DNA from: Rhodococcus spelaei
Lineage (GTDB): Bacteria; Actinomycetota; Actinomycetes; Mycobacteriales; Mycobacteriaceae
Reading direction: 5' to 3'
Assembly: GCF_006704125.1 (NCBI RefSeq)
Contig: NZ_VIGH01000004.1
Span: forward strand, 124,001 to 188,000
DNA: 64,000 nucleotides
The notes beneath the pieces are model-generated. The model made no database searches, was not told the origin of the DNA, and was given only the letters and a program-made list of their open reading frames with translations. A program made the position numbers and the translations under genes. Below, one piece after another: positions 39,969-50,112 of the stretch; positions within the stretch are counted from its first letter, which is position 1; every line of letters begins with the position of its first letter.

Positions 39969-40039
39969 CGGAAAGCTGTCCCACGGCGGACGTGGCCACG
40001 CCGGGTTGTCGCCAAGTTGTTAGCGGGACCCGCCCCCGC

Positions 40040-40417
40040 TCAGTGCGCGGTGGAACGCTTGCGCACCAGTGCGTAGATCGCCCGCCAGCCGAGCAGGAAC
40101 AGCGCGAGCACACAGGTGGCCACGATGATGAAACTGAATGCGGTGCCCTGTCCGCCGATCACCCGCAGGATCATCCCGCCCGCGACCGTGCAGATCCAGA
40201 TGATCACCCCGGCGGGGATCACCGAGGCGGGCAGCGACTTGTTCCGGTACAACCCCTCGTTCGCCGCCCAGCCGATCGCGAGCCCGCCGAGGAACGGCCA
40301 GGCCGTGCTGACCAGGCCGGCGACGGCGTTGGCCTCGTCGTGACTGCGGCGTCCGATCGCGCAGAACACGATGACGAGCACGATGTCGACGACCAGAACC
40401 GGCAATACCTTCTTCAC
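40040..40417 (-). CDS. DUF3054 membrane protein
   Basis: 125 residues with four membrane segments (starting VLPVLVVDIVLVIVFCAIGRRSHDE). Matches DUF3054. The GTG at 40417 is preceded by TACCCT and seven bases, a leaderless start; the frame extends upstream without coding character. The function is unknown. Confidence 0.82.
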   Translation of the reverse strand: MKKVLPVLVVDIVLVIVFCAIGRRSHDEANAVAGLVSTAWPFLGGLAIGWAANEGLYRNKSLPASVIPAGVIIWICTVAGGMILRVIGGQGTAFSFIIVATCVLALFLLGWRAIYALVRKRSTAH

Positions 40418-40545
40418 GCCGACCAGGGTAGGCCCGCGCGAAGAGTTCCCTTTGGGCGGGACGGACCGTTTCAGGTTTCGGCATCCGGACCTACCGTGAG
40501 CCGCGACACACCTGATCGGAACCGACACGCCAGGAGGCAATGAGA

Positions 40546-42090
40546 ATGACGCAGTGGAACGAGGAGTGCGACGTTCTGGTGGTGGGCTCGGGCGGAGGCG
40601 GCGTCACCGGCGCCTACACCGCGGCCCGCGAGGGACTGTCGGTGATCCTGGTGGAGGCCACCGACAAGTTCGGCGGTACGACGGCCTACTCCGGCGGCGG
40701 GGGAGTGTGGTTCCCGTGCAACCCCGCCCTCCAGCGCGCCGGCACCGACGACACCATCGAGGACGCACTCGAGTACTACCACTCGGTCGTCGGCGACCGC
40801 ACCCCGCGTGAGCTGCAGGACGCCTACGTCCGCGGCGGTGCGCCGCTGATCGAGTACCTCGAGCAGGACGAGAACCTGAAGTTCGAGATGCTGCCGTGGC
40901 CGGACTACTTCGGCAAGGCCCCCAAGGCGCGACTGGACGGCCAGCGCCACACCATGCCGTCCGTACTGCCGGTGTCGGAAGCGCCCGAGTTGCGAGAGGT
41001 CGTGCGCGGACCGCTGGATGCCGACCGGCTCGGCACGCCCGCGCCCGACGACTACTTCATCGGTGGGCGGGCGCTGATCGCCCGCTTCCTCAAGGCGATC
41101 GAGAAGTACCCCGACGCCACGCTGCAGCGCAGCTCCCCGCTCGTCGAGTTGGTCGTCGAGGGCGATGCGGTGGTCGGCGGCATCGTCGAACGCGACGGCG
41201 AGCGCGTCGCGATCCGCGCCCGGAAGGGTGTGCTGCTGGCGGCCGGCGGCTTCGAGGGCAACGACGAGCTGCGCCAGAAGTACGGCGTGCCCGGCGTCGC
41301 CCGCGACACCATGGGCCCGTCGGCCAATCTGGGTAAAGCCCACCAGGCCGGCATCGCGGTCGGAGCCGACACCGACCTGATGGAGCAGGCCTGGTGGTCG
41401 CCGGGCATGACGCATCCGGACGGCCGCTCGGCGTTCGCGCTGTGGTTCACCGCCGGCATCTTCGTCAACCAGGACGGCAAGCGGTTCGTCAACGAGTCCG
41501 CGCCCTACGACCGGCTCGGCCGCGACATCATCGCCCAGTTGGAGGACGGCTCGGCCACCTTGCCGTACTGGATGGTCTACGACCACAAGGAGGGCGAACG
41601 CCCGCCGGTCAACGCCACCAACGTGTCGATGGTCGAGACGGAGAAGTACGTCGAGGCCGGTCTCTGGCACACCGGCGACACCCTCGAGGAACTCGCCGCC
41701 AAGATCGGCGTGCCGGCGGAGAACCTGGTGGCCACCGTCGCGCGCTTCAACGAGATGGCCGGCAAGGGCGTCGACGAGGACTTCGGTCGCGGCGACGAGG
41801 CCTACGACCGCGCATTCTCGAACGGTGAGCCGCCGCTGGTGACCATCGACCAGGGCCCGTACCACGCGGCCGCGTTCGGCATCTCGGACCTCGGCACCAA
41901 GGGCGGTCTGCGCACCGACACCGCAGCGCGGGTGCTCGACAAGTCGGGCAATCCGATCCCGGGCCTGTACGCGGCGGGCAACACGATGGCTGCGCCGAGT
42001 GGCACCGTCTACCCCGGCGGGGGTAACCCGATCGGTACCAGCATGCTGTTCGGCCACCTCGCCGTGAAGGACATGGTCGGCGGCAAGTAG
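40546..42090 (+). CDS. FAD-binding dehydrogenase, 3-ketosteroid delta1-dehydrogenase-like
   Basis: 514 residues. GSGGGGVTGAYTAAREG is the FAD-binding loop at 14-30. It keeps the three tyrosines used by KstD enzymes: Tyr121 in WPDYFGK, Tyr in ESAPYDRLGR and Tyr in VYPGGGNPIG. It therefore probably removes hydrogens from the C1-C2 of a 3-ketosteroid-like ring, though the true substrate is not proved. ATG 40546 was preferred over 40540 because AGGAGG is then eight bases away. Confidence 0.85.
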   Translation: MTQWNEECDVLVVGSGGGGVTGAYTAAREGLSVILVEATDKFGGTTAYSGGGGVWFPCNPALQRAGTDDTIEDALEYYHSVVGDRTPRELQDAYVRGGAPLIEYLEQDENLKFEMLPWPDYFGKAPKARLDGQRHTMPSVLPVSEAPELREVVRGPLDADRLGTPAPDDYFIGGRALIARFLKAIEKYPDATLQRSSPLVELVVEGDAVVGGIVERDGERVAIRARKGVLLAAGGFEGNDELRQKYGVPGVARDTMGPSANLGKAHQAGIAVGADTDLMEQAWWSPGMTHPDGRSAFALWFTAGIFVNQDGKRFVNESAPYDRLGRDIIAQLEDGSATLPYWMVYDHKEGERPPVNATNVSMVETEKYVEAGLWHTGDTLEELAAKIGVPAENLVATVARFNEMAGKGVDEDFGRGDEAYDRAFSNGEPPLVTIDQGPYHAAAFGISDLGTKGGLRTDTAARVLDKSGNPIPGLYAAGNTMAAPSGTVYPGGGNPIGTSMLFGHLAVKDMVGGK

Positions 42091-42094
42091 CCAC

Positions 42095-42146
42095 ACACGA
42101 GCGAACCCGCCGTGGCCCTGTCGGGCCGCGGCGGGTTCGCTCGTGT
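42095..42146. terminator. Bidirectional terminator
   Basis: 18-base perfect arms ACACGAGCGAACCCGCCG (42095-42112) and complement (42129-42146) between the KstD-like gene and the converging YceI gene. Confidence 0.8.
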
Positions 42147-42157
42147 ACGTGGGTGGA

Positions 42158-42709
42158 TCAGGCCTGCAGGCCGGCCTCGATCTCGAGGGTGATGGTGATC
42201 TTGTCGCCGACGACGGCGCCGCCGCCCTCGAGCGGCATGTCGATGCTGATGCCGAAGTCCCTGCGGTTGATCACGGTGCTGGCCTCGAAGCCGGCGACCG
42301 GGCCGTTGCCCATGCCCGGGTTGACGCCGTTGAACTCGAGCTTCAGCTCGACCGGGCGGGTGACGCCGTGCAGCGTGAAGTTGCCCTCGACGACGAAGTC
42401 CTCGCCCTTGGCGCGGACACCGGTGGACGCGAAGGTGGCGGTCGGGAACTGCTCGGCGTCGAAGAAGTCGGCGGTCTTGAGGTGGCCGTCGCGCTGCTCG
42501 TTGTCGGTGGTGATGGACCCGACCTGGATCTGCGCCTCGACGGAGGGGGTGCCGTCGGCGGCGACCGTGACGGCGCCCGAGAAGTCCTGGAAACGGCCGC
42601 GAACCTTGCTGACCATGAGGTGGCGAACCGAGAAGCCGACGGTGGAGTGGCTGGCGTCGATGGCCCAGGTGCCGGGGGTCAGGGTGGGGAGGGCGGTGGC
42701 GGTGGTCAT
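42158..42709 (-). CDS. YceI family protein
   Basis: 183 residues. It has the YceI lipocalin-like pattern: PGTWAIDASHSTVGFSVRHLMVSKVRG and the EAQIQVGSITTDNEQRDGHLKTADFFDAEQFP region. It binds a long isoprenoid or lipid in a beta-barrel. No signal peptide is visible, so this form is probably cytosolic. GGAG precedes the ATG. Confidence 0.92.
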   Translation of the reverse strand: MTTATALPTLTPGTWAIDASHSTVGFSVRHLMVSKVRGRFQDFSGAVTVAADGTPSVEAQIQVGSITTDNEQRDGHLKTADFFDAEQFPTATFASTGVRAKGEDFVVEGNFTLHGVTRPVELKLEFNGVNPGMGNGPVAGFEASTVINRRDFGISIDMPLEGGGAVVGDKITITLEIEAGLQA

Positions 42710-42812
42710 GGGGGCTCCTCTGCACGGTGGCTAGCTGATTGAATGTTCAACCTCTTGCTGGGTCCAACGGTGCCACCGCCGGTTCGCTTCCCGCAACCGA
42801 GTGTGGCGTCGG

Positions 42813-44519
42813 TCACATCGGCCCCGGAGCGGCCGTTCCGGTGACCGTGGCCAGCACCGCGCGCAGCGCGGACGCCGTCACCGACCGGTCGAGGGCGACG
42901 CCCCACTCGACACGACCGCCGACCCGGCACTGCGCGAACGTGACCGCCTGCGCATCCCGGCCCGACGTCGTCGACTGCTGCGTGAGTGCGAGGACCTCGA
43001 GGTCGATGCCGCGCTCGGACAGGACCCGGGCCAGTGCATCGACCGGGCCGGTGCCGACGGCGTCGCCGTTCACCGCGATCTCGCCGGAGGTGGCACGGAT
43101 CCGGAGCCGGTCGCCGTTCGCGAGGTGCTCGACGGTCCACTGCTGCAGTACCCCGTGGTGGAAGTAGTGCTCCTGCAACAACTCCCACAGCTGCTCCGCG
43201 CTGATCTCTGCGCCGCTGCTGTCGGTCGCCTGCTGCACCCGCTTCGCGAAGTCGATCTGCAGCAGTCGCGGCAGGTCGATGCCGTAACCCGACTGCAGCA
43301 GGTACGCGATGCCGCCCTTGCCGGACTGACTGTTGACCCGGATCACCTCGGTGTAGTCCCGGCCGACGTCACGCGGGTCGATCGGCAGGTACGGCACCTC
43401 CCACGGGTGTCGGGCCGGATCGGCGCCGGCCGTCTCCGCGCTCGCATGGTGGTGCGCGAAGCCCTTCTTGATCGCGTCCTGATGCGTGCCCGAGAAGGCG
43501 GTGTAGACCAGGTCGCCGCCGTACGGGTGCCGGGGGTGAACCTCGATCCTGTTGCAGTACTCCACGGTTCGGCGAACCGAGTCGATGTCGGAGAAGTCGA
43601 TCATCGGGTCGACGCCCTGGGCGTGCAGGTTCAGGGCGAGCGTCACCAGGTCGACATTGCCGGTGCGTTCACCGTTGCCGAACAGACAACCCTCCACTCG
43701 CTGCGCCCCGGCCAGGACCGCCAGTTCGGCGCAGGCCACGCCGGTGCCGCGGTCGTTGTGCGGATGCACCGACAGGATCACCGACTCGCGGCGGGCGAGG
43801 TTGTGGTGCATGTACTCGATCTGGTCGGCATACACGTTCGGTGTCGAAATCTCCACGGTGGCAGGCAGGTTGTGGATCACCGGACGGTCGGGTGAGGCGT
43901 CCCACAGCTCGGTGAGGCTGTCGCAGACCTGCAGCGCGAAGTCGGGCTCGGTCAGGTTGAACACCTCGGGGGAGAACTCGAAACGGACGCCGGGTGTCGC
44001 GTCACCGCCGCGGGCGACATCCTGCGCGGCATCGAGGATCAAGCGGTGCAGCGTGTCCCGGTCATGTCCGAGCACGACGGACCGCCAGGTGGGAGCTGTC
44101 GCGGTGTACATGTGCAGCACGACGTTCGGCAGCCCACGCACCGACTCGTAGGTGCGTTCGATCAGATCGGTGCGGGCGGCGGTGAACACGACGATCGTCA
44201 CGTCGTCCGGCACCAGGTCTTGCGTGGCGAGGTCGCGGACGAAGTCGAAGTCGGTCTGGCTGGCGGACGGGTATCCGACCTCGATCTCCTTGTAGCCCAT
44301 GGCAATCAGCTGCTCGAACAGTTGGCGCTTGCGCTGCGGGTCCATCGGTTCGGCGAGGGCCTGGTTTCCGTCGCGCAGGTCCACCGGGACCCACAGCGGG
44401 GCGACGGTGGTCCGGTTCGTCGGCCAGGTGCGGTCGATCGGCGGTACCGGCACCCGCTCGTCGTACGGACGGTAGCGGTGGCTGGGCATGGCGGACGGGG
44501 TCTGGCGGTTCCAGTTCAT
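42813..44519 (-). CDS. leuA: 2-isopropylmalate synthase
   Basis: 568 residues, the long actinobacterial form. It has [58 protein letters not shown] (metal-binding His and Asn) and a C-terminal leucine-binding LeuA_dimer domain from about 435. It condenses acetyl-CoA with 2-ketoisovalerate in leucine synthesis, and leucine inhibits through the C-terminal domain. ATG 44519 has GGAGCTCGCC upstream. Expression is preceded by a leader-peptide attenuator and a promoter overlapped by a FadR-type operator. Confidence 0.95.
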
Positions 44520-44564
44520 GGCGAGCTCCAGGCGAATCGGAGGGTCGACCGGCACGGCGGAACC

Positions 44565-44602
44565 CCGCGACGGGGGGCCGGTCCGGTCAGACCCCGTCGC
44601 GG
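44565..44602 (-). promoter_or_regulatory. leuA attenuator hairpin
   Basis: On the transcript CCGCGACGGGG (44602-44592) pairs perfectly, 11 of 11, with CCCCGTCGCGG (44575-44565). The first arm lies in the leader peptide's last codons and the stop codon lies in the loop, so ribosome position on the leader decides whether this hairpin forms. Confidence 0.75.
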
Positions 44603-44631
44603 CGGTGAAGGAGAAGCCCGCGGAAAGCCAT
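44587..44631 (-). CDS. leuL: leuA leader peptide, Leu-Leu-Leu
   Basis: A 14-residue frame [14 protein letters not shown] followed by TGA. Three leucine codons in a row, CTT CTC CTT, include CTT, which is rare in this GC-rich sequence. It starts seven bases after a TAGCGT -10 box, so it is leaderless. Slow translation at the leucine codons when leucyl-tRNA is short would change folding of the overlapping hairpin. Too short for standard gene finding. Confidence 0.78.
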
Positions 44632-44638
44632 GACGGGT

Positions 44639-44667
44639 ACGCTAGGCCTTATCAGCTTGTCTGACAA
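44639..44667 (-). promoter_or_regulatory. leuL-leuA promoter
   Basis: Minus-strand TTGTCA (44667-44662), 17-base spacer, TAGCGT (44644-44639), then seven bases to the leader ATG. A near-consensus sigma-70-type promoter with a leaderless start. Confidence 0.7.
44657..44667. promoter_or_regulatory. FadR/GntR-type operator
   Basis: TTGTCTGACAA, a perfect palindrome with the TnGTnnnACnA pattern of FadR-subfamily operators, 14 bases before the GntR gene start and overlapping the -35 of leuA. Confidence 0.65.
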
Positions 44668-44681
44668 CCCGAGGAGTTCAC

Positions 44682-45371
44682 GTGGCCGCGCCGTTGCGCC
44701 GAAACCTGCTGGCCGATCAGGCCGCCGACCTGCTGCTTCGCCGACTTGCCGCCGGGGAGTGGGAGGTCGGGGCGAAGCTGCCGGGGGAGACCACCCTCGC
44801 CGCCGAACTGGGGGTCGGGCGGTCGACCGTCCGGGAGGCGCTGCGCATGCTCGGCGGGCAGGGCCTGCTGCGGGCGCGGCAGGGCGCCGGCGTCTTCGTC
44901 GAACGCACCGAACCGGCACGCGGGGAGGGCTGGGAGTCGGTGCTGCGTGCGGAGACCGTCGCCGCGGTCGTCGAGGTGCGCAACGCGATCGAGGTCGAGG
45001 CGGCCCGTCTCGCCGCGGGTCGGGCCGACGAGGAGGACGTTCGCGCGATGCGCGTCGCGCTCGACAGACGCGGCGAGGCGTTCGCCGAGGGGGACCGCGA
45101 GTTCGTCGAGGCCGACATCGCCGTGCACCGCGCCGTGATCGTCGCCGCGCACAATCCGGTCCTGACCGAACTGTTCGAGACCTTCGTGCCGCGGCTGACC
45201 GACGCGATGCTGGAGTTGGTCGACCTGCTCGGTGTCCGCGACAGCGATCCCGACCTCGATGCCGACGGGCACCTCGCTCTGGTCGACGCGGTCGCGTCCG
45301 GCGACGCGGATGCCGCCGTCGCGATCAGTCGGGCGCACCTCGAGTCGATGCTGGCGGCTGTTCGTCGCTGA
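44682..45371 (+). CDS. FadR-subfamily GntR transcriptional regulator
   Basis: 229 residues. An N-terminal winged helix (GAKLPGETTLAAELGVGRSTVREALRMLGGQGLL) and a C-terminal FCD helical bundle with metal-binding residues (HRAVIVAAHNPVL; D and H positions). GTG 44682 has GAGGAG upstream. The TTGTCTGACAA palindrome between it and leuA suggests it represses itself and probably also leuA. Confidence 0.88.
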   Translation: MAAPLRRNLLADQAADLLLRRLAAGEWEVGAKLPGETTLAAELGVGRSTVREALRMLGGQGLLRARQGAGVFVERTEPARGEGWESVLRAETVAAVVEVRNAIEVEAARLAAGRADEEDVRAMRVALDRRGEAFAEGDREFVEADIAVHRAVIVAAHNPVLTELFETFVPRLTDAMLELVDLLGVRDSDPDLDADGHLALVDAVASGDADAAVAISRAHLESMLAAVRR

Positions 45372-45392
45372 GCGCGGCGCCGTCCACCGGTC

Positions 45393-45443
45393 GGGTGATG
45401 GTTCCCTTCGCCCAGTCAGACCGAATGATGGTTCCCCTCACCC
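45393..45443. repeat. Family A element, copy 3 (direct-repeat variant)
   Basis: TGATGGTTCCCTTCGCCC at 45396-45413 recurs at 45426-45443 with two changes. The spacer AGTCAGACCGA matches that of other family A copies. Here the left arm is in the opposite orientation, so only the outer ends (GGGTGA/TCACCC) pair. It overlaps the 3' end of the next gene by six bases. Confidence 0.65.
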
Positions 45444-46622
45444 GGGGTGGTGGTGGTCCTCGGTGGGGTTGGTGAGCGGGTTGGTGAGCGGGTCGGTGAG
45501 CGGGTTGGTGAGCGGATTGGGGGGCTGCGCGCGGTTCTGCAGGCCCTGCTGCTCGGCGCGCTCGAGTTCGACGTCGAACTCCAGGTCCTCGTGCTGGTGC
45601 CCGCGGAACAGGAAGAGGAAGACCACCCAGCCGGCCAGCGCGACCAGGATGAAGCTGACCCCGCGGTACACGAACGCCGCGGCCACGGCCTGCGAGGCGC
45701 TGATGCTGGCCGCGGTGGTCAGTGTCGCGATCAGTGTCGCGTCGACGAAGACCAGGCCCCCCGGCGCCAACGGGATGGTCGCGACCGCCTTGCCCGCCGC
45801 GAACGCGATCAGCAGTCCCGACAGCAGCGGGTCGGCCCCGATCGCGTAACAGGCGAAGGCAAGGCACACCACGTCGCCGATCCGATGCACCGCCGACCAG
45901 CACAGCGTGATCGCGGCGTCCTTCTTCCCCAGCTGCACCGACTCGAGCTGGGTCAGCGTCTCGCGGACGGTGTGCATCCCGGTGTCGGCCGGCTTCCCGC
46001 GCATCGAGTTGACCCGGACGAGCACCCAGCGGGCACCGGACTCGATCGAGCTCGGGTGTGCGGAGACGTAGCGGACCGCGAGCACCAGGGCGATCAACCC
46101 GACGAGTGAGAACGTCAGCGTGAACGGGCTGACCGAGCCGCCGACCAGCAGTGCGCCGCCGAAACCGAGCAGGGCCAGGCCCGCGGCCGCGATCACCCCG
46201 GAGATCGCGAGCTGCCAGGACGCCACCACCGGGCTCGCGCCCCAGCGCCGCGTCTCCCGGTAGGTGAAGGCGGTCGAGAAGACCTGACCCGCGGGCAGCG
46301 TCACCGCCATCGCGGTCGACGCGTAGACCACAGCGACCGACTTGCGCTGGCTGACCTCCACCCCGCCGGCGTGCAACAGCTGCTTCTGCACGCGGCCGTA
46401 CCCGCTGAGCGAGACCGCCTGCGCGAGAATGCAGGCGGCCAGCCAGCCCCAGTGGATTTCGGTGAGCGCCCGCCAGGACTCGTGCAGTCGTGGCCACAGG
46501 TACACGCCCTCCGCGCACAGCAGCGCGACGACCAGGAGGCCGGCGACCCATTTGACCCACCAGAAACGACCGCGGCGACGTTCGGGGACGCCCCCGTTCG
46601 GGTCCGGCTGCGGCGCTACCAC
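45438..46622 (-). CDS. Lysylphosphatidylglycerol synthase TM region/UPF0104-type flippase-like protein
   Basis: 394 residues with about eight membrane segments; GRVQKQLLHAGGVEV and LPAGQVFSTAFTYRETRRWGASPVV match the LPG_synthase_TM/UPF0104 group. This position next to the mmpL3 block fits Rv0204c in Mycobacterium. It has no catalytic domain, so it probably flips or moves a lipid. The C-terminus is a tandem NPLT/DPLT repeat encoded by a 12-bp DNA repeat. Confidence 0.8.
   Translation of the reverse strand: MVAPQPDPNGGVPERRRGRFWWVKWVAGLLVVALLCAEGVYLWPRLHESWRALTEIHWGWLAACILAQAVSLSGYGRVQKQLLHAGGVEVSQRKSVAVVYASTAMAVTLPAGQVFSTAFTYRETRRWGASPVVASWQLAISGVIAAAGLALLGFGGALLVGGSVSPFTLTFSLVGLIALVLAVRYVSAHPSSIESGARWVLVRVNSMRGKPADTGMHTVRETLTQLESVQLGKKDAAITLCWSAVHRIGDVVCLAFACYAIGADPLLSGLLIAFAAGKAVATIPLAPGGLVFVDATLIATLTTAASISASQAVAAAFVYRGVSFILVALAGWVVFLFLFRGHQHEDLEFDVELERAEQQGLQNRAQPPNPLTNPLTDPLTNPLTNPTEDHHHPG
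45466..45520. repeat. 12-bp tandem repeat encoding an NPLT tail
   Basis: About 4.6 copies of GGGTTGGTGAGC (third copy with one change). On the minus strand it encodes four-residue units NPLT or DPLT at the C-terminus of the membrane protein. Whole-codon units allow length change without frameshift. Confidence 0.85.
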
Positions 46623-46675
46623 TAGCCCAGACTAGCCAACGGCCGGCGAATCACCCGCCAACACCGGACCGACGG

Positions 46676-48190
46676 TCACGGGTACCGGATCGGGCTCGCC
46701 AGGTGGGTCACGCGGTTCCGGCCCCGCAACTGCACCTGCTCACCGAGCTCCCACTGGGCCTGCTCCTCGTCGTCGGCGAAGTACACGGCGCTGGTCGAGG
46801 CCAGCACCCGGCTCGGGCGCAATTTGGCCAGCTCGGTGAGCCGGGACGCCTCGTTGACCGGGTCGCCGATCACCGTGTATTCGAAACGCTCTGCGGCGCC
46901 GATGTTTCCGGCCACCGCGAGGCCGGCCGACACGCCGATTCCGATGTCGAGGCCGGTGATGTCGTTGAGCGCGAACCGCAGCTCCCGCGCGGCAGCCAAC
47001 GCCGCGGCCGGGGCGTCCGGCCGGTCCAGCGGGGCGCCGAAGATGGCCAGGGCCGCGTCGCCCATGAACTTGTTGACGAAGCCGTGATGACGGTCGACCA
47101 CGTCGACGACCACCCGGAAGAACTCGTTGAGCAGGCTGACCACCTCGCCCGGTGGCTGCTCGGCCGCGGCCCCGGTCGAGCCCACCATGTCCACGAACAG
47201 CACCGCAACGAAGCGGGTCTCGCCGCCGAGTTCGGTGCCGAACTGCAGCGCGCGACGCGCCACGTCCTCGCCGACGTGCTGACCGAACAGCTCGCGCAGC
47301 ACCCGACGCTCGGCCGAGTCCGCCATCATCCGGTTGAAGCCGACCTGCAGCCGGCCGATCTCGCTGCCGTCGAACACCTCCACCTGCACGTCGGTAGCGC
47401 CACGCTGGACCCGCTCGATGGCCCGGCGCAACTGGCGGATCGGGTCGGAGACCTGGCTGGCCGTCAACATCGACAGCACGAACGCGGTGGTGATCGTCAT
47501 GCCCGACAGCAGCAGGATCGCGACCGCCAGCGAGTTGGTGGAGAACTGCAGGTCGGTGCTCAGTTGAGTGGCACACAGCAGGATGATGCCGATGACCGGC
47601 ATCAGCGTGCCCAGCCCCCAGGTCATCGCCATCCGGGTGCCGACGCCCGGTGCCAGCGTCCGGTCGAACCGGCCTTCACTCAGCGCCCGCGCCGCGACCG
47701 GTCGCAGGATGCGCTCACCGAGCATGTAGGTGAAACCGAACGTGGTGGTCGCGGCCATGCAGACCGTCACCACCACCGCGACCGCCAGTTCTGGCATCTC
47801 CGAGGCGGTCAACGCCACGAACAGGATCCCGCCGAACACCCACAGGATCAGGTGCACGATGGCCTGCCGGAGCGGGGCGTGCAGGGCGGCCATCTGCTCG
47901 CTGCGGGTCGGGGGCCCGCCGCGCAGCTGCCAGCGGATCACCGAGCGCAGCATCATCGCGGCTGCACCGAGGCTGACGACTCCCGCCAGGAACAGGTAGA
48001 TGCCGAAGACGATGCCGTTGCGTACCCGGTCCGCGATGATCGCGTCCGTCTCCGTGATCGGCAGCCCGTACCTGATGAACGCCAGCACCAGAACGGCACC
48101 GATGAAGTTCGCCAGGATCATCGACCCCATGTAGAGCGGCCAACGACTGCGCATGGTCAGCGCGACCGCTCGATAGGAGGATGCCAGCAC
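46676..48190 (-). CDS. Membrane-anchored class III adenylate/guanylate cyclase with HAMP domain
   Basis: 504 residues. About six N-terminal membrane segments, a HAMP domain (about 250-305; VSDPIRQLRRAIERVQRGATDVQVEV) and a cyclase homology domain with both metal aspartates (FVDMVGST and KFMGDAALAIFG) and a DPVNEASRLTELAK dimer segment. It makes cAMP, similar to mycobacterial six-TM cyclases such as Rv3645. I chose GTG 48190, which sits seven bases after TAAATT, over TTG 48199. Confidence 0.88.
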   Translation of the reverse strand: MLASSYRAVALTMRSRWPLYMGSMILANFIGAVLVLAFIRYGLPITETDAIIADRVRNGIVFGIYLFLAGVVSLGAAAMMLRSVIRWQLRGGPPTRSEQMAALHAPLRQAIVHLILWVFGGILFVALTASEMPELAVAVVVTVCMAATTTFGFTYMLGERILRPVAARALSEGRFDRTLAPGVGTRMAMTWGLGTLMPVIGIILLCATQLSTDLQFSTNSLAVAILLLSGMTITTAFVLSMLTASQVSDPIRQLRRAIERVQRGATDVQVEVFDGSEIGRLQVGFNRMMADSAERRVLRELFGQHVGEDVARRALQFGTELGGETRFVAVLFVDMVGSTGAAAEQPPGEVVSLLNEFFRVVVDVVDRHHGFVNKFMGDAALAIFGAPLDRPDAPAAALAAARELRFALNDITGLDIGIGVSAGLAVAGNIGAAERFEYTVIGDPVNEASRLTELAKLRPSRVLASTSAVYFADDEEQAQWELGEQVQLRGRNRVTHLASPIRYP

Positions 48191-48297
48191 AGCGACCAAT
48201 TTAGCGCTGCGGTGCAGACAGTCGACGATGCGGACTCGGGAAACGGCCGTCCGGGCACGTCCCGCAAAACCTCCGCGCGGCCGATAGGCTCGCCCGG

Positions 48298-49458
48298 GTG
48301 ACCGCGAACGAGTCGCCCGAGACTCGACCGCGGGGGGCCGACGCCGCGTCGGTGCACCCGCTGGTCCGAGTCAGCGCCGAGTGGACCTGGCGACTGCTGG
48401 TGCTCTTCGCCGGCCTACTGACCCTCGGCTACCTGGTCCACAAGCTCGACACCGTGGTGATCCCGGTCGGGCTGGCGCTGCTCGCGTCAGCGCTACTGTC
48501 CCCACTGGTCAACTGGCTCCAACGGAAAGGCGTCCCGCGGTCCGCGGCCGTCGTCGTCGTACTGGTCGGCGCGATCGGCCTCGTCGCCGGCATCATGACG
48601 TTCGTCATCGAACAGTTCATCACCGGACTGCCCGGACTGACCGACCAGTTCACCCACTCCGTCAACCAGATCCAGGACTGGCTGACCTCGGGGCCGTTCC
48701 ACTTCTCCGAGGAACAGATCCGCCAGGCCGGCGACTCGGTGGTCAAGTCGATCCAGGACAACAAGCAGGCCCTCACCAGTGGAGCCCTGACCACCGGCAA
48801 GGTCATCGGGGAACTGTTCACCGGCGCGGCGCTGACGTTGTTCACCCTCATCTTCTTCCTCTACGGCGGCGAGCAGGTCTGGGCGTTCGTCACCCGGATC
48901 ATCCCGACCCGTTCGCGTGAGCGGGTCCGCCTCGCGGGCAGCCAGGGCTACGGTTCGCTCGTCGGCTACGTGCGCGCGACAGTCGCGGTCGCGGCGGCCG
49001 ACGCCCTCGGTATCGGGGCCGGACTGGCGATCCTCGGGGTCCCGCTCGCGCTTCCGCTGGCCTCGTTGGTGTTCATCGGTGCATTCATCCCCATCGTCGG
49101 TGCCTTCCTCACCGGGTTCGTCGCGGTGCTCGTCGCGCTGGTGACGAAGGGACTGATCACCGCGCTGATCACGCTCGGCATCATCATCGGGATCATGCAG
49201 CTCGAGGGGCACGTGCTGCAGCCGCTGCTGCTGGGCCGGGCGGTCCGGCTGCACCCGCTGGCCGTGGTGCTGTCGATCACCACCGGCATCGTGCTGGCCG
49301 GAATCGTCGGTGGTCTGCTCGCGGTGCCGATCGTCGCGGTGCTGAACACCGCGGTCCGGTCGCTGCTCGCGGAGGATCCCGAAGAGGTCCCGGACGAGGT
49401 CGACATCGAGGACCCGCACCTGCCGCTGTTCCCGGCCATTCCCGACGAACCTGAGTAA
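48298..49458 (+). CDS. AI-2E/PerM family transporter
   Basis: 386 residues with about seven membrane segments and the family's central domain (GYVRATVAVAAADALGIGAGLAILGVPLALPLASLVFIGAFIPIVGAFL). It occupies the place of Rv0205 beside mmpL3. The substrate is unclear; the acidic C-terminus is cytoplasmic. GTG 48298 follows TAGGCT and seven bases (leaderless). Confidence 0.88.
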   Translation: MTANESPETRPRGADAASVHPLVRVSAEWTWRLLVLFAGLLTLGYLVHKLDTVVIPVGLALLASALLSPLVNWLQRKGVPRSAAVVVVLVGAIGLVAGIMTFVIEQFITGLPGLTDQFTHSVNQIQDWLTSGPFHFSEEQIRQAGDSVVKSIQDNKQALTSGALTTGKVIGELFTGAALTLFTLIFFLYGGEQVWAFVTRIIPTRSRERVRLAGSQGYGSLVGYVRATVAVAAADALGIGAGLAILGVPLALPLASLVFIGAFIPIVGAFLTGFVAVLVALVTKGLITALITLGIIIGIMQLEGHVLQPLLLGRAVRLHPLAVVLSITTGIVLAGIVGGLLAVPIVAVLNTAVRSLLAEDPEEVPDEVDIEDPHLPLFPAIPDEPE

Positions 49459-49485
49459 CTCTGCGGCGCCGCATATTCTGGTGCC

Positions 49486-50112
49486 ATGGATGCAAGGGAT
49501 CTGCGGGTGTCCGACGCCGAACGCGAGCACGTGGGGCAACTGCTGCAGCGTGCGGTCGGGCAGGGCATGCTCTCGCTCGGGGAGTTCACCGAACGGATGG
49601 ACACCGCACTGGCCGCCAAGACCCGCGGCGAGCTGAACGCGGTGCTCTACGACCTGCCCGGGATGCGGGTGGTCACGGACGAGGCGCCGCGGCAAGCGGT
49701 CCCAGCGCCCGGTCCGACCTACGCCGCGCCGAGTCCGGTGCCGACGCCGACGAACGCCGTGCGCGCCACCATGACCTCGGTGACCCGCAAGGGGCCCTGG
49801 CAGGTGCCGCCGACGCTGCATGTGAACAACAAGTTCTCCAGCGTCACCCTCGACTTCAGCGAGGCGGTGATGCAGACCCAGGTGGTCGAGCTGATCGTCG
49901 ACGACGTCTGCGGGACCACAACGCTGATCGTCCCGCCCGAAGCGACGGTCGACCTCAACGGCGTCGACACCGTCGGCGGCAGCACCACCAACCGGGTGCG
50001 CACCGGACCTGCGGCCGGACCGCTGCACCTGGTGGTCCGCGGGAAGGTCCGGTTCGGGTCGATCACCGCCAAGCATCCGTTCGGGACGTCCTGGAAGCGG
50101 ATGCTCGGCTGA
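49486..50112 (+). CDS. DUF1707 (SHOCT-like) and LiaF-C-like domain protein
   Basis: 208 residues. DARDLRVSDAEREHVGQLLQRAVGQGMLSLGEFTERMDTALAAKTRGEL is a DUF1707 domain at 1-50, then a Pro-rich linker and a beta-rich C-terminal domain (VDDVCGTTTLIVPPEATVDLNG) like cell-wall-stress LiaF-C. ATG 49486 follows TATTCT and six bases (leaderless). The exact role is unknown. Confidence 0.8.
   Translation: MDARDLRVSDAEREHVGQLLQRAVGQGMLSLGEFTERMDTALAAKTRGELNAVLYDLPGMRVVTDEAPRQAVPAPGPTYAAPSPVPTPTNAVRATMTSVTRKGPWQVPPTLHVNNKFSSVTLDFSEAVMQTQVVELIVDDVCGTTTLIVPPEATVDLNGVDTVGGSTTNRVRTGPAAGPLHLVVRGKVRFGSITAKHPFGTSWKRMLG

What the first reader, a model, noticed from the sequence alone, without database searches (positions are those of the whole stretch)
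44565..44667. Complete leaderless leuA attenuator, overlapped by a GntR operator
Seen: a promoter (TTGTCA, 17 bp, TAGCGT) starts directly at the ATG of a 14-residue frame with three consecutive Leu codons (CTT CTC CTT). The frame overlaps a perfect 11-bp hairpin before leuA. Established: leucine operons use Leu-rich leader peptides for attenuation. Inference: a FadR-type site TTGTCTGACAA covers the -35 region, so leuA may have two layers of control, one by charged tRNA-Leu and one by a neighbouring regulator. Combined use of a leaderless leader peptide and an FCD-type regulator for leuA has, to my knowledge, not been described as a unit.
Basis: partly seen in the sequence, partly recalled or inferred. 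Interest (0 to 1): 0.75.

Follow-up and report, generated by a model that had tools for sequence, protein, structure and literature searches.

The report
Doubly gated second leucine-synthesis gene
A spare copy of the first leucine-making gene carries both a known leucine-sensing RNA switch and, right on its promoter, a conserved probable docking site for the regulator protein encoded next door; the same pairing recurs in many actinobacteria, so control by two independent signals is likely but untested at the bench.

Summary
In detail: a 14-codon frame with CTT CTC CTT starts 7 nt after a TAGCGT -10, overlaps a perfect 11-bp hairpin, and TTGTCAGACAA covers the -35. Three corrections. (1) The leader is a LEU element (leucine frame plus pseudoknot), described for Actinobacteria in 2005; a leaderless leuA leader is already reported from Streptomyces lividans. 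No intrinsic terminator was found, so it is not a "complete" classical attenuator. (2) The gene is a second isozyme, LeuA2; the canonical leuA1 has its own LEU element but no such operator. (3) The GntR-operator-LEU-leuA2 arrangement is widespread in Actinobacteria: 75 of the 80 best GntR homologues have leuA2 within 3 kb; 73 of those 75 have TTGTCNG(A/C) within 200 nt of GntR, against 0 of 18 leuA1 upstream regions. Of 21 LeuA2-bearing genomes among 196 sampled, 20 have LEU at leuA2. Six loci lack a recognised LEU element but keep the operator; where another gene separates GntR from leuA2 in Rhodococcus phenolicus, both ends keep a site. Two-layer control is well supported by comparison; binding, ligand and output are inferred. 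New variant of a known kind.

The parts
44657..44667 (.). probable FCD-GntR operator TTGTC-A-GACAA over the leader -35; the only exact copy in the genome; 14 bp before the GntR start codon
   Evidence: fits the FadR-subfamily TKGT/ACMA boxes of PMC4494728
44662..44667 (-). -35-like hexamer TTGTCA of the leader promoter
   Evidence: sequence; not found by the sigma-70 consensus scan
44639..44644 (-). -10 hexamer TAGCGT (TAnnnT), 7 nt before the leader ATG: leaderless transcript predicted
   Evidence: spacing conserved in 89 of 94 leaders
44587..44631 (-). leader peptide [14 protein letters not shown]
44608..44616 (-). Leu codon run CTT CTC CTT
   Evidence: CTT is 43% of leader Leu codons against 1.2% in leuA coding sequence
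44592..44602 (-). LEU element helix S1, 5' arm (ends 2 nt before the leader stop codon)
44565..44575 (-). LEU element helix S1, 3' arm
44577..44583 (-). pseudoknot helix S2, 5' arm GACCGGC in the loop of S1
44547..44553 (-). pseudoknot helix S2, 3' arm GCCGGTC
44526..44530 (-). Shine-Dalgarno TGGAG of leuA2, possible partner of the Leu codon run
   Evidence: sequence; pairing only weakly supported
42813..44519 (-). leuA2, 2-isopropylmalate synthase isozyme (568 aa)
44682..45371 (+). GntR-family regulator with FCD domain (229 aa), divergent partner of leuA2

Best explanation
This is a LEU-element attenuator on a second leuA isozyme (leuA2), whose promoter is probably occluded by the divergently encoded FCD-type GntR repressor. 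Layer 1 (inferred from conserved architecture): a GntR dimer binds the TTGTC-type site that covers the -35/spacer of the leader promoter and lies beside its own start codon, repressing leuA2 and itself until its ligand, probably a carboxylate from branched-chain or organic-acid metabolism, releases it. Layer 2 (LEU element shown here by structure; mechanism inferred): the transcript starts at the leader start codon, so a ribosome translates the leader at once. When charged tRNA-Leu(GAG) is short it stalls on CUU CUC CUU, just upstream of pseudoknot helix S1, which is then free to form, and the Leu run, which resembles an anti-Shine-Dalgarno, is masked, leaving the leuA2 Shine-Dalgarno open. 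With leucine plentiful the ribosome runs to the stop codon at S1 and leaves, the base stem can form and leuA2 translation falls. leuA2 should be made only when both the GntR signal and leucine shortage are present. LeuA2 keeps the catalytic residues but not the leucine-pocket residues typical of LeuA1, so this control may replace allosteric feedback.
For: LEU element: S1 and S2 form standard pairs in 96.9% of 704 cells, 10 of 18 pairs have changes on both sides, 36 such cells, 0 of 500 shuffles reach this; model hits in 191 of 196 class genomes; the own genome has two strong copies, at leuA2 83.3 and leuA1 82.2 bits. Leaderless: 89 of 94 against 1.0% control; 0 of 63 leuA2 leaders with an SD-like 4-mer at -15..-4. 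Leu sensing: CTT 43% of leader Leu codons against 1.2% in leuA, CTG 9% against 63%; an in-frame expansion of Leu repeats in Kribbella monticola (L086, sequence). GntR pairing: 75 of the 80 best GntR homologues have leuA2 within 3 kb, 72 of them directly divergent; from the leuA2 side 12 of 13 (the thirteenth, L014, is the R. phenolicus locus L095 where GntR lies 2 kb off) and 19 of 19. Site: TTGTCNG(A/C) within 200 nt of GntR in 73 of 75 loci; the other two (L044, L071) carry one at the leuA2 leader; 0 of 18 leuA1 controls. Its distance from the leader start falls mostly into two groups (about -36 and about -30), so it is not simply a -35 hexamer. No recognised LEU but site kept in L034, L050, L060, L062, L091 and L147. 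In R. phenolicus another gene lies between GntR and leuA2 and both ends keep a site. LeuA2 falls on one side of a branch (SH-aLRT 100); R80, D81, H285, H287, N321 in 70 of 70 LeuA2; pocket position Y554 in 18 of 18 LeuA1 but 12 of 70 LeuA2.
Against: No terminator-like hairpin and only middling Leu-run:SD complementarity (Leu run within the best 10% of leader windows in 35 of 81 loci; 23% in the window itself), so the output step is not settled. PMC1262725 reports that in S. coelicolor leader mutations of leuA had some effect but not one consistent with classical attenuation. The second half of the site is not palindromic in most taxa (TTGTCTGAGGA), odd for a symmetric dimer. One of 19 further leuA2 loci (L152) showed no site with the stricter pattern. 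No binding or expression data. The covariance model was built from 40 leaders, 14 of them from the 80 loci scanned with it. All 18 LeuA1 in the tree come from the window's own order.
Confidence: 0.72

Rival explanations
1. Only the LEU element regulates leuA2; TTGTCAGACAA is simply the -35 region and the GntR neighbour controls something else.
For: TTGTCA does serve as the -35 hexamer in the window; binding is untested; two GntR homologues (L054, L075) sit beside amino-acid permease genes instead of leuA.
Against: None of 18 leuA1 genes with the same kind of leader has the site within 400 nt; conservation reaches beyond a hexamer, with T-5, C-4, A10, G11, T13 and G14 each at 84-98% of 80 sites; its position shifts by about 6 nt between lineages; it is present at both genes where GntR and leuA2 are apart; it is retained in six loci without a recognised LEU.
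Confidence: 0.1
2. GntR is an activator or dual regulator: ligand-bound protein at the site helps polymerase at leuA2.
For: Some FCD proteins activate: CitO of Enterococcus binds in the presence of citrate and induces its targets (abstract of PMC4746285, seen in the listing).
Against: The site overlaps the -35/spacer and, in the group at about -30, lies closer still to the -10, a position more typical of repression; it also lies 14-66 nt before the start of the GntR match in 68 of 73 loci, as expected of an autorepressor.
Confidence: 0.15
3. The LEU element acts by Rho-dependent or other transcription termination, or through a protein that binds the pseudoknot, rather than by SD occlusion.
For: PMC1262725 proposed a binding protein; SD occlusion scored only weakly; the conserved pseudoknot is more elaborate than a ribosome-mask model needs.
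Against: Unusual Leu codons and a leaderless start are conserved, which a pure protein-binding model does not need; no protein was tested.
Confidence: 0.4

Closest known systems
LEU element of actinobacterial leuA (Seliverstov et al. 2005, PMC1262725; parts 1 and 2 of 3 of the text read)
   Same: Leu-run upstream frame, pseudoknot, location before leuA; same element here by structure and by its near-identity to the leuA1 leader of the same genome
   Different: Here on a second isozyme with a regulator site on the promoter; no GntR site is mentioned in the parts read
leaderless LeuL1 of Streptomyces lividans leuA (PMC8079986, passages read)
   Same: leaderless Leu leader MRFGLLLLSCRGEGL before leuA, no typical terminator
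   Different: No GntR regulator mentioned in the passages read
FadR-subfamily (FCD) GntR divergons (PMC4494728, passages read)
   Same: FCD regulator beside its target; TTGT-NNN-ACAA fits the TKGT/ACMA boxes
   Different: 'leuA' and 'leucine' occur 0 times in that paper's main text; most relatives of this site keep only the TTGT half
leucine operon leader of enteric bacteria (Rfam Leu_leader, name recalled)
   Same: leader peptide rich in Leu codons
   Different: no Rfam match to the leader at E up to 1; the only hit in 40000-50000 lay elsewhere (40251-40330); no terminator

Membership tests
LEU element (PMC1262725) | upstream frame with a run of Leu codons before leuA | tested here: met
LEU element (PMC1262725) | conserved pseudoknot of two helices | tested here: met
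   both helices with covariation; structure taken from the window sequence, slid controls far lower
LEU element (PMC1262725) | base stem between the Leu run and the leuA Shine-Dalgarno | tested here: inconclusive
classical transcription attenuator | intrinsic terminator hairpin with U run after the leader peptide | tested here: not met
   0 found in 44450-44750
classical transcription attenuator | leader peptide rich in the regulated amino acid | tested here: met
FadR/FCD subfamily of GntR regulators | GntR winged-helix domain plus FCD domain | tested here: met
   PF00392 and PF07729 above cut-off
FadR/FCD subfamily of GntR regulators | operator with TKGT/ACMA boxes | tested here: met
   window TTGT-CAG-ACAA; but 55 of 80 related sites read TTGTCTGAGGA, with the first box only
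FadR/FCD subfamily of GntR regulators | binding of the protein to the site and release by a ligand | not testable with these tools
   needs EMSA or footprinting
2-isopropylmalate synthase | catalytic and metal-binding residues | tested here: met
   for six positions (residue numbers recalled from the M. tuberculosis enzyme); a seventh, E218, was not located by the script
2-isopropylmalate synthase equivalog TIGR00970 | score above curated cut-off | tested here: not met
   682.9 bits against 697.4; it passes the subfamily model NF002991 (776.7 against 455)

The most novel reading that the evidence does not exclude
Actinobacteria share a mobile or ancient two-input unit in which a feedback-relaxed second LeuA is expressed only when an organic-acid signal (via GntR) and leucine shortage (via a leaderless LEU element) coincide, control having moved from the enzyme's allosteric site to its promoter and leader; a third LEU-like element with Leu-Val-Val codons governs a stand-alone LeuA allosteric domain in the same genome and in relatives, forming a small LEU regulon.
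Probability: 0.35. Interest if true: 0.7.

Novelty: new variant of a known kind. Interest (0 to 1): 0.56.

Why it matters
The LEU element was left without a settled mechanism by the 2005 paper, and I found no later study of it in my searches. The leuA2 loci supply natural controls: the same leader with and without the site (leuA2, leuA1), the same site with and without the leader (Rhodococcus ruber L092 against R. fascians L091), and an in-frame expansion of the Leu repeat (L086). They make the LEU mechanism, and the logic of stacking a repressor on an attenuator, directly testable, and they point to a dedicated regulator for a leucine-synthesis isozyme in well-used genera such as Rhodococcus and Streptomyces.

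Tried and rejected
Intrinsic terminator after the leader: none. Rfam family for the leader: none. SD occlusion by the Leu run as a proven step: support too weak, kept as inference. Operator as part of a larger regulon in this genome: only one exact site, so a dedicated local regulator is preferred; degenerate sites were not scanned genome-wide. Operator as mere -35: rejected on position and distribution. Single-sequence fold as evidence: z -1.34, not used. Literature: in the listings (titles and starts of abstracts of 20 of 132, 20 of 29, 15 of 80, 12 of 34, 6 of 6, 2 of 2 and 1 of 1 papers) I saw no paper on a GntR regulator of leuA; the library lacks most subscription journals. S. avermitilis leuA2 is bound by an AraC-type regulator, SAV742 (PMC5107987, passages); whether that gene belongs to the present LeuA2 clade was not tested. 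The context letters printed beside the sites are mis-indexed by my script and are not used; presence and positions are. A label printed says 5% where the script's threshold is 10%; I report 10%.

Full report
What is there. On the minus strand between leuA and a divergent GntR gene the finding's features are all present at the stated places: TTGTCA, 17 bp, TAGCGT, seven bases, then ATG of [14 protein letters not shown], with CTT CTC CTT; the end of the frame forms the 5' arm of a perfect 11-bp hairpin; TTGTCAGACAA covers the -35. The genome is 4.8 Mb in 18 contigs. The nearest named GntR relatives are from Prescottella (70 and 69% identity), so the genus is probably Prescottella or close to it; this was not tested further.

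It is a second leuA. The genome has a canonical leuA1 (TIGR00970 943.8 bits) and the window gene (682.7 bits), 53% identical. Its leader is nearly the same as that of leuA1 from the Leu codons to the pseudoknot. Of 106 LeuA sequences extracted from my loci, 88 were long enough and free of stops (70 LeuA2, 18 LeuA1). A tree of 55 of them (37 LeuA2, all 18 LeuA1; quick method, LG+G4) puts LeuA2 on one side of a branch with SH-aLRT 100; the LeuA1 are all from the window's own order, so the split is tested only against those. R80, D81, H285, H287 and N321 are kept in 70 of 70 LeuA2 and H379 in 69 of 70, but the leucine-pocket region is relaxed: Y554 18 of 18 in LeuA1 and 12 of 70 in LeuA2; A558 16 of 18 and 13 of 70; A565 18 of 18 and 15 of 70 (numbering and pocket membership recalled). 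In an even sample of 196 class genomes of at least 90% completeness, at least 21 carry a LeuA2-type protein (61% identity or more to the window's; the match list was cut at its low end), and each of the 21 has at least two leuA: LeuA2 is an accessory isozyme.

The leader is a LEU element. Seliverstov et al. 2005 (PMC1262725, parts 1 and 2 of 3) described before leuA in most Actinobacteria a Leu-run frame, a pseudoknot and a possible base stem with the Shine-Dalgarno. I located 51 leaders, aligned 44 and kept 40 (L020, L024, L031 and L090 left out for long or shifted loops). On these 40 both helices hold with covariation well above shuffled and slid controls. A covariance model built from them finds the element in 191 of 196 class genomes. 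Leaderless start: TAnnnT 12-13 nt before an in-frame start in 73 of 76 leuA2 and 16 of 18 leuA1 leaders, 1.0% in shuffles. This agrees with S. lividans, where the leuA leader LeuL1 is transcribed leaderless but lacks a typical Rho-independent terminator (PMC8079986, passages). C. glutamicum and C. diphtheriae leuA leaders are also reported (PMC4046766, PMC5784534, passages), though no start site could be assigned for the latter. So the leaderless Leu leader itself is known.

Which codons. Among 324 Leu codons in the Leu runs of 94 leaders, CTC is 47%, CTT 43% and CTG 9%; among 3,676 Leu codons of leuA coding sequence CTG is 63%, CTC 32% and CTT 1.2%. CTC and CTT share one tRNA (general knowledge), so the leader probably senses tRNA-Leu(GAG). 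In Kribbella monticola (L086) the leader has grown in frame to a peptide with many Leu pairs and triplets while the end of the frame is kept (sequence printed).

The GntR layer. The protein has GntR and FCD domains; Asp145, His149 and His197 are invariant and His219 nearly so in 12 aligned relatives, which resembles the FCD metal site (recalled). Of these 80, 75 have a LeuA2-type gene within 3 kb (60-80% identity in the best segment). By the coordinates, 72 are directly divergent, L044 and L095 have about 0.9 and 2.2 kb in between, and in L071 leuA2 lies 2 kb away on the other side of GntR. Five have none: L054 and L075 have amino-acid permeases, L080 and L108 have frames without a Pfam match, L096 has no long frame on that side. 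From the leuA2 side, 12 of 13 loci and 19 of 19 further loci from the class sample have the GntR gene adjacent. The exception, L014, has the same leader and contig length (109,443) as L095, so it is the R. phenolicus locus, where GntR is merely farther away.

The operator. TTGTCNG(A/C) lies within 200 nt of the start of the GntR match in 73 of 75 loci; L044 and L071, the other two, have the site at the leuA2 leader. None of 18 leuA1 genes has it within 400 nt upstream. With a stricter pattern, 18 of 19 class-sample loci have it, L152 not. In 80 aligned sites the commonest core is TTGTCTGAGGA (55) and the full palindrome TTGTC-N-GACAA is in 10 (positions 0-4 and 6-7 are invariant by selection, the flanks are not). 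It lies mostly at about -36 or about -30 from the leader start.

The two layers come apart in nature. Five of the 75 GntR-first loci give no LEU hit at E 0.01 (L034, L050, L060, L062, L091), and in G138 (L147) the one LEU hit is not at leuA2; L062 may be a degenerate remnant. All six keep the operator (sequences), and in L050, L060, L091 and L147 the leuA2 start codon stands 37, 32, 30 and 37 nt after the start of the site (my count), about where the leader would start. In R. phenolicus another gene lies between (a dihydrodipicolinate-synthase-family gene in L014), with a site 20 bp before GntR and another at the leuA2 leader. leuA1 has LEU without the site. These are the strongest arguments that the site acts on both genes and independently of the leader. 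Across the class sample 20 of the 21 leuA2 genes have LEU in front.

Mechanism. Shown by comparison: leader architecture, pseudoknot, leaderless spacing, operator conservation and linkage. [quoted passage not shown] The last is the weakest: the Leu run ranks in the best 10% of windows for pairing with the Shine-Dalgarno in 35 of 81 loci, and published mutations in S. coelicolor did not behave as classical attenuation (as told in PMC1262725).

Novelty. The LEU element, the leaderless leader and FCD divergons are each known. Their combination on a leuA isozyme did not appear in my search listings, which cover open-licence PubMed Central papers only and of which I saw titles and abstract starts. 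I class it as a new variant of a known kind.

Noticed in passing
L115:1495-2083 (own genome, contig C1, element at 44871-44955): A third LEU-like element (39.3 bits) with leader MTRILVVRRRSGV, also leaderless by spacing, stands before a stand-alone LeuA allosteric-domain gene (PF08502, 25.2 bits, cut-off 24.9). In 16 of 18 similar loci of relatives the model hits upstream at E 1e-4 or better, two of them partial (not L122, L126); in the 5 of 19 loci where my frame filter found a leader it reads Ile/Leu-Leu-Val-Val (4) or Val-Val-Val (1) rather than Leu-Leu-Leu.
   Followed up: partly
L086 (Kribbella monticola): The leader peptide has expanded in frame by repeats of a Leu-run unit, a natural amplification of the sensing codons.
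   Followed up: no
L095 and L014 (same R. phenolicus locus): A dihydrodipicolinate-synthase-family gene lies between GntR and leuA2, with a copy of the site at each end.
   Followed up: partly
L054, L075 (mycobacteria): GntR homologues stand beside amino-acid permease genes, with similar sites upstream; a hint at the ligand class.
   Followed up: no
L071 (Frankia sp. R82): Two LEU elements in one locus on opposite strands; the one beside GntR precedes a gene that gave no LeuA match.
   Followed up: no
G027 contig C14:95809-97486, and L039: leuA2-like genes in two pieces that adjoin in different frames, probably broken or a sequencing error.
   Followed up: no
L116 and L117 (own genome): Two weaker LEU-like hits, 30.6 and 25.9 bits, unexamined.
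   Followed up: no
42158-42709 and 40540-42090: Downstream of leuA2 lie a YceI-family gene on the same strand and a convergent FAD-binding dehydrogenase-like gene.
   Followed up: no
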